Source of the DNA: an uncultured Gilliamella sp.
GTDB taxonomy: Bacteria; Pseudomonadota; Gammaproteobacteria; Enterobacterales; Enterobacteriaceae
Assembly (NCBI GenBank): GCA_945291235.1
Contig: CALYQY010000103.1
Location: 1-7,204 of the forward strand
Length of the DNA: 7,204 nucleotides
Direction of reading: 5' to 3'
The notes beneath the pieces were generated by a model. It saw only the letters and a program-made list of their open reading frames with translations, ran no database searches and was not told the DNA's origin. Of this stretch, positions 99 to 6,794 are shown one piece after another; position 1 is the stretch's first letter, and each line of letters begins with the position of its first letter. The position numbers and the translations under genes are program-made.

Positions 99-635
99 TT
101 AAAACACTAAATGTTGCAATAACTCCAGTTCAGTGCCGGTTAACATCGTTTGCATCGATAATGCACCAATAATGTAACTTTCACCACTACTTTTTATTTT
201 TCGGATATTGCCTTCACTACAGGCTAAATCCTTCGCTATTTCACGTAAATTTTTAGGTTTGATAATTAATGTCGACGATATTTGTGTTTTGCTTGGTTCA
301 ATATAAAGATGATCATCCACGATCATTTCGTCTCCATAATAAAATTTAATTAAGACTTTTGCTTCTTCTTTTATTTTCGTAATTTTACTGTTTTTCATCG
401 TCGAAATAATGCCATCTATTATTAACCCGTCTTTATCTAAACAGACCTGTTTATATTCCTTTTTTTGGGATTGATATAAACTAAATACTTTGCGTTGTTG
501 ATAGGCTTCTTTTCGAGCCCAATTACCCCAACGGGTTAATACTTGAGTGATATCATAATCAGCATTCAAACTCACTTTATTAAGCCATTGTGTCGGGTTT
601 TGATATTGTTCAACATTGATTTGTTTTGCTAGCAT
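99..635 (-). CDS. Phage antitermination protein Q-like (Q21-type family)
   Basis: This 178-aa protein resembles the Q antiterminators of phage-21 type (Phage_antitermQ family). Those proteins load onto RNA polymerase at the late promoter and let it pass the downstream terminator. Matching parts are the N-terminal VLTRWGNWAR (residues 32-41), a DGLIID segment (69-74), and a C-terminal helix-turn-helix-like stretch (129-159) with NLREIAKDLACSEGNIRK. Family members I recall are about 160 aa. The extra length here is mainly a loop at roughly 101-128. The ATG at 635 has a strong Shine-Dalgarno (GAGGTGA). The gene is divergent from the CI-like repressor and would be transcribed from 823-851 with a leader of about 180 nt. 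Behind it come a consensus promoter and a terminator, the expected Q target. The family call comes from memory of sequence patterns and is fairly firm. Confidence 0.75.
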   Translation of the reverse strand: MLAKQINVEQYQNPTQWLNKVSLNADYDITQVLTRWGNWARKEAYQQRKVFSLYQSQKKEYKQVCLDKDGLIIDGIISTMKNSKITKIKEEAKVLIKFYYGDEMIVDDHLYIEPSKTQISSTLIIKPKNLREIAKDLACSEGNIRKIKSSGESYIIGALSMQTMLTGTELELLQHLVF

Positions 636-700
636 TATTCACCTCAAGTAGTTTCATTTTATTAACGTTAAATTAATAACTAGTAAAAGAATTAATTATC

Positions 701-720
701 AACATGTTTTCATTCATGTT
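701..720. repeat. Small inverted repeat in the Q leader
   Basis: AACATG (701-706) and CATGTT (715-720) form perfect 6-bp arms around 8 bp. It sits in the roughly 180-nt untranslated leader between the leftward promoter and the Q-like gene. The leader (636-806) otherwise holds only tiny open frames (21 and 14 codons, the latter with a GAGAGA sequence upstream) that I would not call as genes. The repeat could be a small RNA hairpin or a binding site. Confidence 0.35.
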
Positions 721-806
721 TTATCTCTCTTTCAGTATTAAAGTTATTTTTTATATCTCTATTAGCACTGATCATGACAAAGATATTCTTGAAAAATTCC
801 TTTCAA

Positions 807-888
807 ATAACTATTATTATTAATAATAACAATAGTTATCATAAAAATCAATAACCAATGTTATTTGAATGATGATAACTTGAGTTAT
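807..888. promoter_or_regulatory. Operator array between CI-like repressor and Q
   Basis: Three 14-bp palindromes share the form ATAAC-N4-GTTAT: 826-839, 851-864 and 875-888. Their starts are 25 and 24 bp apart. A fourth, imperfect copy (ATAACTATTATTAT) lies at 807-820. Together with 826-839 it makes a 33-bp near-perfect palindrome (807-839, 15 of 16 arm positions). The sites cover the leftward promoter (823-851) and the repressor's own promoter (865-893). This is the arrangement expected of phage operator clusters such as lambda OR. Assignment to the adjacent repressor is inferred. Confidence 0.65.
823..851 (-). promoter_or_regulatory. Leftward (PR-like) promoter for the Q gene
   Basis: On the minus strand TTGATT (851-846), a 17-bp spacer, then TATTAT (828-823). 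Initiation is expected near 816. The palindrome at 826-839 overlaps the spacer and -10 box, and the one at 851-864 abuts the -35 box, so repressor bound there should block initiation. It is the only good promoter I see upstream of the Q-like gene on that strand. Confidence 0.55.
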
Positions 889-893
889 ACAAT
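865..893 (+). promoter_or_regulatory. Promoter of the CI-like repressor (PRM-like)
   Basis: TTGAAT (865-870), a 17-bp spacer and TACAAT (888-893). Initiation is expected near 900, about 23 nt before the ATG at 923. The operator palindrome 875-888 fills the spacer, which predicts autorepression. The back-to-back position with the leftward promoter allows one operator array to control both. Confidence 0.6.
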
Positions 894-922
894 AAAGTAC
901 TTCATTACAATGGGATAAAAAA

Positions 923-1618
923 ATGACGACATTTACAGAAAGATTAAATTCAGCATTGAAACAATCTGGTATGTCTCAACATCAATTAGCTGAAAAGGTT
1001 AAAATTAGTCAGCCCGCCATTCAAAAATTACTGTCAGGAAAATCCAATACATCAAGAAAAATTGTTGAAATAGCCAACGCGTTAAATGTTGATTTATTGT
1101 GGCTGACAAAAGGCATTGGCAAAGCGAAATTAACTAAAAATAGTGCCAATGCGACAATGTTAGGTGCTATCGATGAATGGGATAGTAAAACACCACTTGA
1201 TGAGGATGAAGTTGAAGTGCCATTTTACAAAGATGTTAGGCTTTCTGCAGGTAACGGATTTGCTGATGATATTGAAGATTATAACGGATACAAACTGCGA
1301 TTATCACGGTCAACAATGCGAAAATACGGAATTGATAAAGACTGTGCCGTATGTTTAACTGTTTATGGAGATAGTATGGAACCTGTTTTTAGAGACGGGT
1401 CAACTGTCGGTATCAATCAAGCAGACACCAATATTCGAGATGGAAAAATATACGCAATTAATCATGACGGGTTATTAAGAATAAAAATATTGGAAAGATT
1501 GCCTGGTAATCAAGTCAAAATCCGAAGTTACAATTCAGATTATGATGATGAAACTGTTTCTTTGGATGATATCACCATTCTAGGAAGAGTCTGGTGGCAA
1601 TCATCGATATTGGATTGA
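923..1618 (+). CDS. CI/LexA-like phage repressor (XRE HTH plus S24 peptidase)
   Basis: A 231-aa repressor with an N-terminal XRE helix-turn-helix (residues 6-62; core MSQHQLAEKVKISQPAIQK) and a C-terminal S24 autopeptidase domain (about 98-228). The probable cleavage bond is A109-G110 in RLSAGNGF. The nucleophile is S151 in GDSMEP and the general base K188 in LLRIKIL. The S-K distance of 37 equals that of LexA. Family knowledge: RecA filaments formed after DNA damage stimulate self-cleavage and relieve repression, switching on the element. The start ATG has a modest TGGGA ribosome binding site 7 nt upstream. The gene is divergent from the Q-like gene and flanked on both sides by ATAAC-N4-RTTAT palindromes that are probably its operators. 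All catalytic residues are present, so it looks functional. Confidence 0.9.
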   Translation: MTTFTERLNSALKQSGMSQHQLAEKVKISQPAIQKLLSGKSNTSRKIVEIANALNVDLLWLTKGIGKAKLTKNSANATMLGAIDEWDSKTPLDEDEVEVPFYKDVRLSAGNGFADDIEDYNGYKLRLSRSTMRKYGIDKDCAVCLTVYGDSMEPVFRDGSTVGINQADTNIRDGKIYAINHDGLLRIKILERLPGNQVKIRSYNSDYDDETVSLDDITILGRVWWQSSILD

Positions 1619-2518: not shown

Positions 2519-2606
2519 TGGCGGTGAGGAAGGGATTCGAACCCTTGATACGTTGCCGTATACACACTTTCCAGGCGTGCTCCTTCAACCACTCGGACAC
2601 CTCACC
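2519..2606 (-). tRNA. tRNA-Ser(GGA)
   Basis: On the minus strand the acceptor stem GGTGAGG (2606-2600) pairs with CCTCACC (2529-2523), followed by discriminator G and encoded CCA (2521-2519). The anticodon loop CTGGAAA gives anticodon GGA, reading serine UCC/UCU. A long variable arm (TATACGGCAACGTATC region) and the T arm GGGTTCGAATCCC complete a class II tRNA of 88 nt. Its 3' end points to the phage-type region at 1-2422, which makes it a plausible integration site for that element. No second copy of the 3' segment is seen within the window. Confidence 0.97.
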
Positions 2607-2792: not shown

Positions 2793-4883
2793 CTATTGAT
2801 CAACCGAAATGTTTAATGGAATGACATCACTGTTTACTTGTTCTTTCGCAATTTTGGAATATTTAGGCGCAAAATCAAGCAGTATTTCAACAGCTTCATC
2901 TAAATAAGCATCGGGTCGTTTATAATCTTTTGGTAAGTCTTCTAATTTCGCAATTGGAGCCAAACCAGCACGACTCAAACGCTCATTCATGCGTTTCAAA
3001 TCTCGGTCATCATCGCTCTTTTGTTCATCTTCACGATATTGTTTATTTAAAGAAACAATATAACGACTATCCTTTTTATCATTGAACCGTTTAATATCAT
3101 CTTGAATGTAGATAAACTCAGGATTTTTGGCAATTCGAGCTAAATGGTTGGCTTTAAGTTCTGAAAATAAAGGTGCGATATTTGCAACTTTTGAATATTG
3201 CGCTGAAGGTATTTTATCCCATGGCAAAGCATTATCTAAATATCTTTCACCGGTTTCGTCAACATATTTTTCATTGATCATATCAATGTCAGGATCAACC
3301 CCTTTAAGTTGCGTACTCCCACCATTGATTCGATAAAATTTTTGAACAGTATATTGCACACCGCCTAATTCAGGCCAATCCGGATGTAATCTTGCATCTA
3401 CCGGATAAGCTATATTTCGTGAGGTTTGCACCGTTCCTTTACCATATGTCGTTTCTCCAACAATCAACGCTCGACCATAATCTTGCATTGCGGCAGAAAA
3501 AATTTCAGAGGCAGAAGCACTGTACCGATTTATCATCACCACGATTGGCCCTGAATATTTGATACTTTCATTTTTATCATCATAAACATTGATTTTTTGT
3601 AGATTGTCACGCACTTGAACCACAGGCCCTGTATCAATAAATAGCCCAGTTAATGCAATAACTTCTGCTAAAGAACCACCGCCATTATCGCGTAAGTCGA
3701 TAACAAGCCCTTGCAGATTATCTTGATTAGCTTGCGTTAATAGTGAATTGACTTTTTGAGTTAATCCTATATAAAAACTCGGAATTTCGATAACACCAAC
3801 CTTCCCTCGTTGATTGTCGATAATTTTTAGTTTAGCTTCCCTGTCTTCAAAATGAATTTTATCACGTGTTAGTTCAACAATTTTAGGTTTGCTACTATTG
3901 CCTGCCGGTAAAATTTCGAGTCGGACAACAGTTCCTTTTCGCCCACGAATTTTTTCAACAACATCATCGAGACGCCAGCCAATAACATCTTCAATGGCTG
4001 AATTACCTTGTCCGACACCAATAATTTTATCACCAATGGTTAGTTGTTTACTTTTTTCAGCCGGTCCACCCGTTACAAAAGACATAATCTCGGTGTAATC
4101 ATCTTTTTGACTTAAAGTGGCTCCAATACCTTCCATTGATAAATTCATCTCAGCATCGAAGTCTCGTTTCTTTCGTGGCGCCAAATAGCTGGTATGAGGA
4201 TCAATTTCGCGTGCAAATGCATTCATAAACACTTGGAACGCATCTTCAGTTTTGGATTGTAACAATGTTTTTAACACACGATTGTAACGTTTAGTTAAAA
4301 CTTCACGTATCTCTTTCTCATTTTTACCGGATAATGAAAGACTTAACTCATCATATTTGACTCGTTTATCCCAATAATTATCAAGCTCTTCTTCGGTGCT
4401 TGCCCATGAAATATCTTCTCTTTTAAAATCAATATTTTCATTAGTTGAAAAATCCATAGGGCGTTGTAAAACTTTTAAAGCATATTGAAATCGGTTATAT
4501 CTTTTTTGAATAGAAAGATTATAAATGTCATAGGCCATTTTCAAATCGCCATCTAACAGCTCTTGACCTAACGACGCTTGTTTATCTCTAAAACTATCAA
4601 TATCACGCTGAATAAAAAAAGATTTATTGCCATCTAATAGTTTAAAATAGCGGTCAAAGATTTTGGCTGAAAATGCCCCATCTAAATCAAAATTACGGTA
4701 ATGGGCTTGAGTAAAATAGTTAGTTACCCTATTTGCCACAATTTGATGAATTTGATCTTGTTTAAGCGTAGGTAATTGTTCTGTAACTGACGAATTAGTC
4801 TGAACTGCTTGGCAAACGATACTTGGACTAATAACACAAAGAACAAGTAACGATTTTCTTATACCTTTAAATAAATTACTCAT
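2793..4883 (-). CDS. prc: Tail-specific periplasmic protease Prc (Tsp)
   Basis: A carboxy-terminal processing protease (S41 family) that degrades periplasmic proteins with nonpolar C-termini and, in E. coli with NlpI, the peptidoglycan hydrolase MepS. Counting from the first in-frame ATG (4889): a signal peptide (basic residues near 8-12, hydrophobic core, cleavage probably after CQA at 28), an N-terminal helical region (about 40-240), a PDZ domain (about 245-330), the protease core (335-535), and a C-terminal domain with DLPKDYKRPD. The catalytic Ser459 (SASASEIF), Asp470 (AMQDYG) and Lys484 (TYGKGTVQ) match E. coli S452/D463/K477 in spacing. Length is near the E. coli protein (682 aa). AGAGA is 6 nt before the ATG at 4883 but touches the ATG at 4889, so I prefer 4883 (696 aa). 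It follows proQ within 3-9 bp, as one operon. Confidence 0.97.
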   Translation of the reverse strand: MSNLFKGIRKSLLVLCVISPSIVCQAVQTNSSVTEQLPTLKQDQIHQIVANRVTNYFTQAHYRNFDLDGAFSAKIFDRYFKLLDGNKSFFIQRDIDSFRDKQASLGQELLDGDLKMAYDIYNLSIQKRYNRFQYALKVLQRPMDFSTNENIDFKREDISWASTEEELDNYWDKRVKYDELSLSLSGKNEKEIREVLTKRYNRVLKTLLQSKTEDAFQVFMNAFAREIDPHTSYLAPRKKRDFDAEMNLSMEGIGATLSQKDDYTEIMSFVTGGPAEKSKQLTIGDKIIGVGQGNSAIEDVIGWRLDDVVEKIRGRKGTVVRLEILPAGNSSKPKIVELTRDKIHFEDREAKLKIIDNQRGKVGVIEIPSFYIGLTQKVNSLLTQANQDNLQGLVIDLRDNGGGSLAEVIALTGLFIDTGPVVQVRDNLQKINVYDDKNESIKYSGPIVVMINRYSASASEIFSAAMQDYGRALIVGETTYGKGTVQTSRNIAYPVDARLHPDWPELGGVQYTVQKFYRINGGSTQLKGVDPDIDMINEKYVDETGERYLDNALPWDKIPSAQYSKVANIAPLFSELKANHLARIAKNPEFIYIQDDIKRFNDKKDSRYIVSLNKQYREDEQKSDDDRDLKRMNERLSRAGLAPIAKLEDLPKDYKRPDAYLDEAVEILLDFAPKYSKIAKEQVNSDVIPLNISVDQ

Positions 4884-4892
4884 TGCCATTCT

Positions 4893-5855
4893 CTATTGAT
4901 TAATTATGTGCTCTGGTTTAACTGTTAGTTGCATACCTGAACCAACCTTCACTTTGATATGTTCTTTTTCAATATCAATGATCTGCACTTTTAATGGTTT
5001 ATTGCCCATCGTAACCTTAACAAAATCACCAATTTTTAAAACTCTATTTTTTTTAGGTGGAGTATAAGCTCTTTTAGGTTTCGATTTGTTTTGTTTTTTA
5101 AAGTGCTCTTTAGCTTTACTTTTGCTCTCTTTAAGCTGTTGTTGTGCATAATCCATCTGTTCTTGGGTAATGACTTCATTGAGATTACCATCTAAATCAA
5201 CACGATGCGAGCCAACTTTTATACTATATAAGTAACGCCAATTATTGGTATAAACACGTAAGGCAACACGTAGTTTCGTTTTGCTTAATTCTTGGTTTCC
5301 ATCAAGACGTGAAAGTATGTCCTGAAATATGCCGATTTTCAAGGGTTTTGCTTCGCCCTCAATAGTAAAACAATTAGGAAATTGTTGGGCTAAATATACA
5401 ATAATTTCTTTACTATTTGTCAATTGAAACTGTTTTTCCATCTGTTCTGCCGTAATAATTAAACTGTTGGGTTGTGAATGAATTGCGTTATTGTTTACTT
5501 TGGGTTGTTCTTTAAAGGATTCTATCGTTTTTTCTTTACTTTCTATTAGTTGTTGCTTAGCAAGATTCATCTGTTCCTGAGTTATGATTTCATGGGGATT
5601 ACCGTCTAAATCGATCCGATAAACCCCAATTTTTATACTTTCTAAATAATGCTGACTATTCATGTAGAAATCTAACGCATCATTGAGTTTAGCTAAGCTT
5701 AATTTAGGGTTTTCATTTAATCGGGAAATAATGTCGTAAACAATGCCCTTTTTAAAAGGTTTGACATTATTCCCAAACGCAAAAGAATCTGGAAATTGCT
5801 TAACTAAATAAGCAATAATTTCGTCATTTGTTGTTAATTGAAATTGTTTTCCCAT
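4893..5855 (-). CDS. proQ: ProQ RNA chaperone with duplicated FinO domain
   Basis: ProQ binds structured sRNAs and mRNA 3' ends through a FinO/ProQ domain. This 320-aa version (E. coli 232) carries two such domains, residues 1-117 and 139-255. They align without gaps at offset 138 with about 66 of 117 identities. A short Lys-rich linker (about 250-270) and the C-terminal Tudor-like domain (272-320) follow once. Domain 2 keeps the E. coli RNA-binding positions K35, K54, R58, R62, R69, Y70 and R80. Domain 1 keeps K35, Y70 and R80 but has L, N, D and H at 54, 58, 62 and 69. Residue M139 begins the second copy and is preceded by a copy of the gene's own leader. The TAG stop is 3-9 bp from prc, the usual proQ-prc order. 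The gene lies 63 bp behind a Mu-type regulator on the same strand, with no clear promoter between. Confidence 0.93.
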   Translation of the reverse strand: MGKQFQLTTNDEIIAYLVKQFPDSFAFGNNVKPFKKGIVYDIISRLNENPKLSLAKLNDALDFYMNSQHYLESIKIGVYRIDLDGNPHEIITQEQMNLAKQQLIESKEKTIESFKEQPKVNNNAIHSQPNSLIITAEQMEKQFQLTNSKEIIVYLAQQFPNCFTIEGEAKPLKIGIFQDILSRLDGNQELSKTKLRVALRVYTNNWRYLYSIKVGSHRVDLDGNLNEVITQEQMDYAQQQLKESKSKAKEHFKKQNKSKPKRAYTPPKKNRVLKIGDFVKVTMGNKPLKVQIIDIEKEHIKVKVGSGMQLTVKPEHIINQ

Positions 5856-5880
5856 TTACTTTTCCGTAATAACTAAATTT
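5091..5880 (-). repeat. Tandem duplication within proQ including 5' leader
   Basis: Two units of about 376 bp, 5505-5880 and 5091-5466, are offset by exactly 414 bp with no indels in the aligned coding part. The unit includes 25 bp of non-coding leader before the proQ ATG. That leader is repeated before the internal ATG at 5441, with 17 of 25 bases identical by hand count and the core TTTARTTATTACGG kept (13 of 14). The second leader copy is read in frame as the inter-domain linker SLIITAEQ. Confidence 0.85.
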
Positions 5881-5918
5881 TATAAGCGCTAAAGTATATA
5901 TCAGCTAAATTAATAACA

Positions 5919-6275
5919 CTAATCTTCTTTATTTTGTTTATTGATGAAACTGATGAAATCTTTTATACCATTTCGCATTAGCCATGAAGAGACAATCGAT
6001 TGCTCATCGGGTGTCAATTGTTCAAAAGCAGTCATCCAAAGTTGAAGAGGTTCAATGGGTGAAATTACATAGCTTGCACTCTCTTCCTCAATATATAATG
6101 CTTTTTTGACATCTGACGGTAAACTTCCAATATGATATTCGACAGCTTTACCTCGAACACCTGAACGTTTACGTGCAGTCCATTTTTCAGCTCTTGCTTT
6201 TCGATTAATACCTTGTATTGTTGTAGGCATCCCTGCAATGCTTGACAGCTCTTTAGATGAGAACCATTCTTTCAT
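5919..6275 (-). CDS. Mu-type DNA-binding protein (MuA N-terminal / c repressor-like)
   Basis: A 118-aa protein whose first 60 residues match the Mu transposase/repressor DNA-binding domain: MKEWFSSKEL, GMPTTIQGINRKARAEKW, then ARKRSGVRGKAVEYHIGSLP. This winged-helix domain recognises operator or transposon-end DNA in phage Mu. The rest (about 80-118, LQLWMTAFEQLTPDEQSIV and onward) is a helical tail with no catalytic transposase motif. Its length and position opposite a Ner-like gene fit a c-type repressor better than a MuA fragment. ATG 6275 is preferred over ATG 6284 because AGGA lies 8 nt before it, while it touches the earlier ATG. The gene runs toward proQ with a gap of 63 bp, so it may drive or modulate proQ-prc by readthrough. 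No terminator is seen in the gap. Confidence 0.75.
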   Translation of the reverse strand: MKEWFSSKELSSIAGMPTTIQGINRKARAEKWTARKRSGVRGKAVEYHIGSLPSDVKKALYIEEESASYVISPIEPLQLWMTAFEQLTPDEQSIVSSWLMRNGIKDFISFINKQNKED

Positions 6276-6345
6276 TTTAACCATCCTAATTTTAAATAAC
6301 CAGAAAAAAATACAGAAATTAAAGAAATCTTGTTATACTAAATAA

Positions 6346-6452: not shown

Positions 6453-6794
6453 ATGGAAATAAAATTCAGCGATTGGCATCACGCTGATATTATAGCTGCA
6501 CTAAAAAAGAAAGGGACAACACTATCTGAATTATCCCGCCGATCGGGTTTTAGTTCGTCAACTCTTGGTAATGCGCTTGTTCGACCATGGACAAAAGGGG
6601 AATTTATTATTGCTAAAGCCCTTGATTTAGATCCGTCCGAAATTTGGCCTAGTCGTTATATTGATGCAAAAACAAATCAGCCAATTAAGCGTGTTGTTTA
6701 TGAAAAGAAATTAAATTTTGAATCATCCGGTTTAAATCAAGAAATGATTGAAGAAATGATAGAAAAAATAAATAAAAATAATCAGGAAACTTAA
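6453..6794 (+). CDS. Ner-like transcriptional regulator (Mu Ner / Nlp family)
   Basis: A 113-aa protein whose residues 7-70 match phage Mu Ner: DWHHADIIAALKKKG, LSELSRRSGFSSSTLGNAL, then KGEFIIAKALDLDPSEIWPSRY. In Mu, Ner binds the early control region and dampens both the repressor and the early transposition promoters; chromosomal relatives (Nlp/SfsB) also exist. Ner is about 75 aa, so this version has an extra C-terminal tail of about 40 residues, ending in a charged helix (NQEMIEEMIEKINKNN). The ATG has a good AGAGGG ribosome binding site 8 nt upstream. It is divergent from the Mu-type repressor gene, the Mu c/ner arrangement, but no transposase A or B gene follows. It is either a prophage relic or a recruited host regulator. 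Confidence 0.85.
   Translation: MEIKFSDWHHADIIAALKKKGTTLSELSRRSGFSSSTLGNALVRPWTKGEFIIAKALDLDPSEIWPSRYIDAKTNQPIKRVVYEKKLNFESSGLNQEMIEEMIEKINKNNQET

What the first reader, a model, noticed from the sequence alone, without database searches (positions are those of the whole stretch)
4893..5880. ProQ with two tandem FinO domains and a fossil leader inside the coding sequence
The two domains align without gaps at an offset of 138 residues (414 bp). The leader just upstream of the gene's ATG (TTTAGTTATTACGG) recurs as TTTAATTATTACGG just upstream of the internal ATG 139, where it is now translated as linker. This shows an in-frame tandem duplication of leader plus domain, with the first copy losing the linker and Tudor domain. 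Canonical ProQ has a single FinO domain, so this is an unusual architecture for a global RNA chaperone.
Basis: partly seen in the sequence, partly recalled or inferred. Interest (0 to 1): 0.75.

Follow-up and report, generated by a model that had tools for sequence, protein, structure and literature searches.

The report
ProQ with a duplicated FinO domain
In one small branch of the bee-gut bacterium Gilliamella, the RNA-binding protein ProQ has copied its RNA-binding domain together with the stretch that once started its translation, so the old start region is now translated inside a longer protein; one relative shows a third, decaying copy.

Summary
Window 4893-5855(-) encodes a 320-aa ProQ with two FinO domains and one Tudor domain. 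The source is a Gilliamella close to isolate wkB308. All 44 Orbaceae genomes searched have a FinO domain; 3 have two in one frame (G001, G002=wkB308, G027). By partial prc they form one clade with the window (98/94), with single-domain G006 as sister.

In the window alone the 'fossil leader' is not decisive: the linker also resembles the domain's own IITxEQM end. G027 settles it. It carries three units; between units 0 and 1 the proQ leader is still an untranslated spacer with GGA, and between units 1 and 2 it is translated as linker.

Leaders before a start keep GGA (43 of 43); the 4 translated fossils (two lineages) read GGC. One fusion event is likely, but the domain tree alone cannot reject two.

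Domain 2 keeps G37, K54, R58, R62, R69, Y70 and R80. Window domain 1 keeps only G37, Y70 and R80 of these and evolves fast (pooled pN/pS 0.47 against 0.05).

Best reading: one-step duplication of leader, domain and part of the linker; domain 1 is a weakly constrained passenger kept in frame because domain 2 lies downstream.

The parts
4893..5855 (-). proQ coding sequence, 320 aa: FinO domain 1, linker, FinO domain 2, linker, Tudor (ProQ_C)
5893..5898 (-). conserved TATACT element upstream of the first unit (taken as a -10 box by eye); not part of the duplicated unit
   Evidence: TATACT before the first unit in 42 of 42 loci, before the later units in 0 of 5
5864..5877 (-).
5526..5855 (-). FinO domain 1 (residues 1-110); 3'-end pocket residues kept, hairpin-contact residues lost
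5442..5525 (-). inter-domain linker (residues 111-138), low model confidence; contains the fossil leader
5450..5463 (-). fossil leader TTTAATTATTACGG, translated as linker; GGC at 5449-5451 where start leaders have GGA
5112..5441 (-). FinO domain 2 (residues 139-248), aligns with the start of single-domain ProQ; keeps G37, K54, R58, R62, R69, Y70, R80 (E. coli numbering)
4902..5042 (-). Tudor-like ProQ_C domain (residues 272-318)
2793..4889 (-). prc, tail-specific protease, downstream neighbour; its N-terminal part was used for the genome tree

Best explanation
This is the chromosomal proQ of a Gilliamella lineage. In the ancestor shared with G027 a segment of about 0.42 kb was duplicated in tandem. 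It ran from just downstream of the proQ promoter, through the leader and the FinO domain, into the linker. In 16 of 42 loci, the sister G006 among them, this leader has no in-frame stop for 6-24 codons, so such a copy could be read straight through: unit 1 fused to leader, unit 2 and Tudor. The fossil leader then lost the GGA element before the second ATG (GGC in the 4 fused loci), so the long protein is probably the main product. Domain 2 plus Tudor does the ordinary ProQ work, binding terminator hairpins and 3' ends. Domain 1 is a weakly constrained passenger: its frame must stay open because domain 2 is translated through it, but its hairpin-binding residues have gone in the window clade and its G37 pocket residue in G027. 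G027 also carries a third unit upstream that is decaying; whether it came later or was ancestral is open. Shown: architecture, phylogenetic restriction, three-unit locus, residue losses, GGA/GGC contrast. Inferred: single event, one-step copying, loss of internal initiation, passenger status.
For: 3 of 44 Orbaceae genomes carry two FinO domains in one frame. They and the window are one clade on partial prc (98/94), and together with single-domain G006 a clade at 100/98. G027 has three units; spacings 421 and 423 bp, 414 in the window (start positions); its unit 0/1 leader scores 17.6 bits against a matrix from 30 single-domain leaders, a score reached by 3 of 1261 ATG sites, true leaders included. 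GGA is kept before 43 of 43 starts and lost in 4 of 4 fused leaders; -23 G and -8 C occur in 4 of 4 fossils and 0 of 35 Gilliamella start leaders compared (L027 and L035 left out). TATACT lies before 42 of 42 first units and 0 of 5 later ones. Pooled pN/pS: domain 1 0.47, domain 2 0.05. Residue table. Unit 0 differs from G006 evenly over codon positions, 17/15/17 in codons 1-60.
Against: The domain tree does not reject two separate duplications (p-AU 0.40 and 0.195) and places all ten domain copies together with only 76/40 support. Unit 0 of G027 fell outside that group, on a branch of 4.57, and was then left out. The predicted anti-SD pairing at the G027 internal site is not weak (-4.9 kcal/mol, against -3.3 to -3.5 for most leaders), and real leaders are themselves weak, so internal initiation is not excluded. 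Domain 1 shows some constraint: L001-L002 6 synonymous to 8 nonsynonymous, p 0.034; there is a third-position excess against G006, 30 of 56, p 0.0014, which partly reflects G006's own branch. Only three close sequences were available for the rate test; the Fisher test of domain 1 against domain 2 for one pair gives p 0.056. Most Gilliamella leaders do have a stop just before the ATG.
Confidence: 0.62

Rival explanations
1. Domain 1 has been repurposed: it keeps the pocket for the RNA 3' end (G37, Y70, R80) but not the hairpin grip, and so binds 3' ends without a hairpin, or a protein partner, and changes ProQ's target range.
For: K35, G37, Y70, L71 and R80 are kept in all three window-clade sequences while K54, T55, R58, R62, T65, W68 and R69 are changed. 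FinO fold predicted (mean pLDDT 79.6, blocks from residue 11 to 110 at 81-95). Some constraint in one pair (p 0.034).
Against: Change is not significantly concentrated in helix 3 (8 of 14 conserved sites changed against 26 of 78 elsewhere, p 0.13). I36 beside the pocket is changed to K. Domain 1 in G027 shows the opposite pattern (grip kept, G37D), so no shared new function is seen.
Confidence: 0.22
2. The fossil leader still works, so the gene makes two proteins: the 320-aa form and a canonical 182-aa ProQ from ATG139.
For: ATG139 aligns with the start of most single-domain relatives; the G027 internal site has predicted anti-SD pairing of -4.9 kcal/mol.
Against: The GGA kept before 43 of 43 starts is GGC in all 4 fused leaders; the window site, with its L001 and L002 copies, has the weakest pairing of the 47 listed (-2.8); TATACT is not copied.
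Confidence: 0.14
3. The duplication and fusion happened separately in the window clade and in G027.
For: The AU test does not reject it (p 0.40 and 0.195); G027 has an extra unit, so the locus can duplicate more than once.
Against: Carriers are one prc clade (98/94); the D2 copies group together (94/89, 92/81); similar junction (HS-P-NSL) and two shared derived bases.
Confidence: 0.12
4. The linker segment is not a leader at all but chance, or a copy of the domain's own IITxEQM end.
For: In the window the linker matches the D1 and D2 domain ends at 14 and 15 of 22 bases, nearly as well as the leader (16 of 22); synonymous recoding reaches 16 in 11%.
Against: The G027 linker reads NSLVETAKRM, close to the open leader of G012/G013 (NLVATEKRM) and unlike its own domain end; the G027 unit 0/1 boundary is a strong, untranslated leader match (17.6 bits).
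Confidence: 0.04

Closest known systems
Canonical gamma-proteobacterial ProQ (E. coli type, PF04352 + PF17516; NCBIfam NF003434)
   Same: FinO domain, linker and Tudor domain in the same order; above both Pfam cut-offs and the NCBIfam cut-off (312.6 against 127 bits); domain 2 keeps G37, K54, R58, R62, R69, Y70, R80; prc lies next to it (the same neighbour in E. coli is recalled, not tested).
   Different: An extra FinO domain and a translated fossil leader are fused to the N-terminus; 320 aa against 178-186 aa for the named Gilliamella ProQ proteins in the list.
Single-domain ProQ of the sister genome G006 (L030)
   Same: Nearest relative by prc; its leader is open in frame for 11 codons (RYKILATTEKRM) and resembles the G027 linker.
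   Different: One FinO domain only.
RocC and Lpp1663, paralogous FinO-domain proteins of Legionella (PMC9977716, two passages seen)
   Same: Arose by duplication and then diverged, according to that review.
   Different: Two separate proteins, not a tandem fusion in one.

Membership tests
ProQ (PF04352 + PF17516) | FinO domain over the curated cut-off | tested here: met
   206.1 bits, 2 stretches, cut-off 27
ProQ (PF04352 + PF17516) | C-terminal ProQ_C / Tudor domain | tested here: met
   51.4 bits, cut-off 23.3; strand-rich C-terminal domain in the model, Tudor/PWWP chains among the weaker structure matches (E about 0.01-0.03)
ProQ (PF04352 + PF17516) | Equivalog-level match to NF003434 | tested here: met
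   312.6 bits, cut-off 127; domain 1 alone scores 105.7, domain 2 with tail 213.2
ProQ (PF04352 + PF17516) | A single FinO domain (usual, not a formal criterion) | tested here: not met
   two PF04352 stretches; 41 of 44 Orbaceae genomes do not have two in one frame
ProQ (PF04352 + PF17516) | RNA-contact residues G37, K54, R58, R62, Y70, R80: domain 2 | tested here: met
   all six kept
ProQ (PF04352 + PF17516) | RNA-contact residues G37, K54, R58, R62, Y70, R80: domain 1 | tested here: not met
   three of six lost in the window clade (K54L, R58N, R62D); in G027 one lost (G37D)
ProQ (PF04352 + PF17516) | Global binding of sRNAs and mRNA 3' ends in the cell | not testable with these tools
   needs RIP-seq or gel shifts
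Plasmid FinO (NF010317) | Curated cut-off, 136 bits | tested here: not met
   72.1 bits

The most novel reading that the evidence does not exclude
The gene is a snapshot of a one-way ratchet: a leader was copied into the coding frame, its start function was lost, and a superfluous RNA-binding domain became locked in because the working ProQ can now only be made through it; the locked-in domain is drifting to a half-site that keeps the 3'-end pocket without the hairpin grip.
Probability: 0.25. Interest if true: 0.7.

Novelty: new variant of a known kind. Interest (0 to 1): 0.52.

Why it matters
In the passages and listings I saw, no ProQ or FinO protein with two FinO domains is described. Here is a natural two-domain version, present in a cultured bee symbiont (wkB308), with a single-domain sister and a three-unit relative, so its birth can be followed step by step. 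The two lineages lost different parts of the RNA site in domain 1 (hairpin grip in the window clade, a 3'-end pocket residue in G027), which is a natural mutagenesis of how FinO domains divide these jobs. It also gives a clear case of a ribosome-entry leader turned into protein linker, with GGA changed to GGC in all 4 fused loci (two lineages).

Tried and rejected
Chance and micro-repeat origins of the linker: tested, not excluded from the window alone, rejected on G027. Assembly artefact: rejected, as the form appears in the window, a MAG (L001), an isolate (L002) and G027, and in two protein clusters with 37 and 20 member sequences. Foreign origin of domain 1: the tree places it with G006 and domain 2 (91/85). 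Unit 0 of G027 as ortholog of window domain 1: shared AYLV and F-F residues speak for it, the G37D shared by G027 units 0 and 1 against it; left open. Unit 0 fell among other single-domain rows on an extreme branch (4.57) and was dropped from the tree. Remains of a Tudor domain behind copy 1: none seen by eye in the alignment. Two-domain proteins elsewhere: six order-level genomes have a second FinO match in a frame of 543-752 aa; two of these frames were read and by eye hold one FinO domain inside low-complexity repeats. Papers: no paper on ProQ in Gilliamella or Orbaceae was found (1 paper holds both words, on housefly larvae, not opened; none) and none on tandem FinO domains (1 paper, for the phrase 'FinO-like domains'; 20 of 38 listed, judged by title and start of abstract; 15 of 16 listed; 15 of 123 listed; 5 of 253 listed). 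Most papers of subscription journals are not in that library.

Full report
What is there. Window 4893-5855 on the minus strand encodes a 320-residue ProQ. Pfam finds the ProQ/FinO domain in two stretches and one ProQ_C (Tudor) domain; NCBIfam calls the whole protein RNA chaperone ProQ at 312.6 bits against a cut-off of 127. The two domains align without gaps at offset 138, with 62 of 110 identities. The closest solved chain by sequence is the E. coli ProQ FinO domain, matched by residues 137-251. AlphaFold gives two FinO-like domains joined by a low-confidence linker (pTM 0.35, so relative placement is not modelled). Domain 1 modelled alone matches RocC, a Legionella ProQ homologue, FinO and NMB1681; these make up all 24 matches at E <= 0.001.

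Where it comes from. Four loci were found in the genome collection: L001 (uncultured Gilliamella MAG, 98%), L002 (Gilliamella sp. wkB308, 96%) and two single-domain Gilliamella. wkB308 is an isolate from Apis cerana (PMC9897726, four passages seen). Of 935 protein hits, 120 were listed; only two clusters (P0001, 37 members; P0002, 20 members) cover 99% or more of the query, the other 118 listed cover 33-57%.

How rare it is. All 44 Orbaceae genomes searched have a PF04352 match; 3 have two in one open frame, all among the 35 of the genus search. In the order-level sample 337 of 394 genomes had a match. Apart from G002 and G027, 12 genomes there had two matches: 11 were checked and have them on different contigs or far apart, and G032's second match is a weak fragment elsewhere. 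In the class-level sample 38 of 369 had a match, and only G002 had two in one frame. The samples overlap, and a strongly diverged second domain could be missed by the profile.

History. On a tree of the N-terminal part of prc (42 loci) the window, L001, L002 and G027 form one clade (98/94), and with single-domain G006 a clade at 100/98. The FinO-domain tree groups the second domains (94/89) and places both domain copies with G006 (91/85); unit 0 of G027 falls elsewhere on a branch of 4.57. Without unit 0, all ten copies form one group with support 76/40 only, and separate duplications in the two lineages are not rejected (p-AU 0.40 and 0.195). Single origin therefore rests on the prc clade, the similar junction and the shared leader changes below.

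The three-unit relative. In G027 (L039) the promoter-proximal unit 0 is an open frame of 134 aa that matches the FinO profile only at its start (model positions 2-38, 27.6 bits) and ends inside the next leader. A full leader then precedes a 323-aa two-domain ProQ whose own second leader is translated as NSLVETAKRM. Unit spacings are 421 and 423 bp, against 414 bp in the window. Unit 0 differs from G006 evenly over the codon positions (17/15/17 in codons 1-60), whereas the four other units compared have their largest count at third positions; this suggests loss of constraint.

The leader. All 42 first units have TATACT upstream; none of 5 later units does, so the copied unit began downstream of the promoter. 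In 16 of 42 loci the leader lacks an in-frame stop for 6-24 codons, G006 among them (11 codons); in the other 26 a stop lies at or one codon before the ATG, the window's own first leader included. Translated leaders of relatives read like the linkers: NLVATEKRM in G012 and G013, RYKILATTEKRM in G006. In the window the leader and fossil match at 16 of 22 bases; 6 of 74,790 background 22-mers do as well, three of them the leader itself. However, synonymous recoding of the linker peptide reaches 16 in 11% of trials, and the linker matches the domain ends at 14 and 15 of 22, so the window alone does not settle it. The window fossil scores only 2.2 bits against the leader matrix (9 of 1261 ATG sites do as well). 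The G027 unit 0/1 leader scores 17.6 bits, reached by 3 of 1261 ATG sites, true leaders included, and that does settle it.

GGA to GGC. All 43 leaders that precede a translation start in the set keep GGA; the 4 fused leaders do not (47 sites examined; L045 was not picked up by the script's start rule, and G037 and G042 were not fetched as loci). At -23 and -8 all 4 fossils carry G and C, found in 0 of 35 Gilliamella start leaders compared; the genus members L027 and L035 and the six outgroup loci were left out of that count. The window, L001 and L002 are near-copies, so this is two lineages, not four. Predicted anti-SD pairing is weak at the window fossil (-2.8) but not at the G027 fossil (-4.9); true leaders are mostly -3.3 to -3.5, and the median of 134 ATGs in the window strand is -2.35.

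What domain 1 can still do. R58, Y70 and R80 are essential for RNA binding in E. coli ProQ, with K54 and R62 contributing (PMC10578477, abstract and passages seen). RocC binds the RNA 3' end in a pocket with Tyr87, Arg97 and Gly52, and the hairpin through a helix N-cap (PMC9674577, abstract and passages seen). Domain 2 keeps G37, K54, R58, R62, R69, Y70 and R80. Window domain 1 has K54L, R58N, R62D, W68Q and R69H, but keeps G37, Y70 and R80. G027 domain 1 keeps the grip but has G37D. Concentration of change in helix 3 is not significant (8 of 14 against 26 of 78, p 0.13).

Selection. Over three pairs of close sequences the pooled pN/pS is 0.47 for domain 1, 0.05 for domain 2 and 0.08 for the tail (the pairs are not independent). 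For window against L002 domain 1 has 5 synonymous and 11 nonsynonymous changes, domain 2 has 5 and 1; Fisher p 0.056, or 0.011 with the tail added to domain 2. Domain 1 is not distinguishable from neutral in that pair (p 0.17) but is in L001 against L002 (6 and 8, p 0.034). Its open frame is no evidence of function, because domain 2 is translated through it.

Mechanism and verdict. The most likely story is one tandem copying of leader, domain and part of the linker, read through in frame because the leader was open, followed by decay of the internal start and of domain 1's RNA site. It is a new variant of ProQ, confined to one small clade in present data. Its function is otherwise inferred to be that of ProQ, through domain 2 and the Tudor domain.

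Noticed in passing
L039 4873-5277 (-): Third, degenerate FinO unit upstream of the two-domain proQ in G027; its frame ends inside the next leader, 16 bases before the next ATG, so the two may be translationally coupled.
   Followed up: partly
L054 874-3132 (-) and L053 575-2461 (-): Second, very long FinO-domain proteins (752 and 628 aa) in order-level genomes G653 and G669: by eye one FinO domain between an N-terminal Lys/Ala-rich part (with RRTKAQIEADKAAEEA repeats in the 752-aa protein) and a C-terminal tail of GGYQNRYQ-type repeats. G696, G704, G720 and G728 also have second matches in frames of 543-692 aa. They look like RNA chaperones with large low-complexity arms.
   Followed up: partly
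window 5919-6284 (-) and 6453-6794 (+): HTH_Tnp_Mu_1/YfeC-like regulator and HTH_35 gene upstream of proQ; similar frames lie in the same order in G027 (L039).
   Followed up: no
window 99-1618: Phage antitermination Q-like gene (99-635, -) and S24-type repressor (923-1618, +), a likely prophage remnant.
   Followed up: no
window 2519-2606 (-): tRNA-Ser (anticodon GGA) between the prophage-like genes and prc.
   Followed up: no
L040 around 3850-4006: Weak ProQ-like fragment (23 bits, below cut-off, one stop inside) in G032, among frames that look like conjugative-transfer genes (naming by eye).
   Followed up: no
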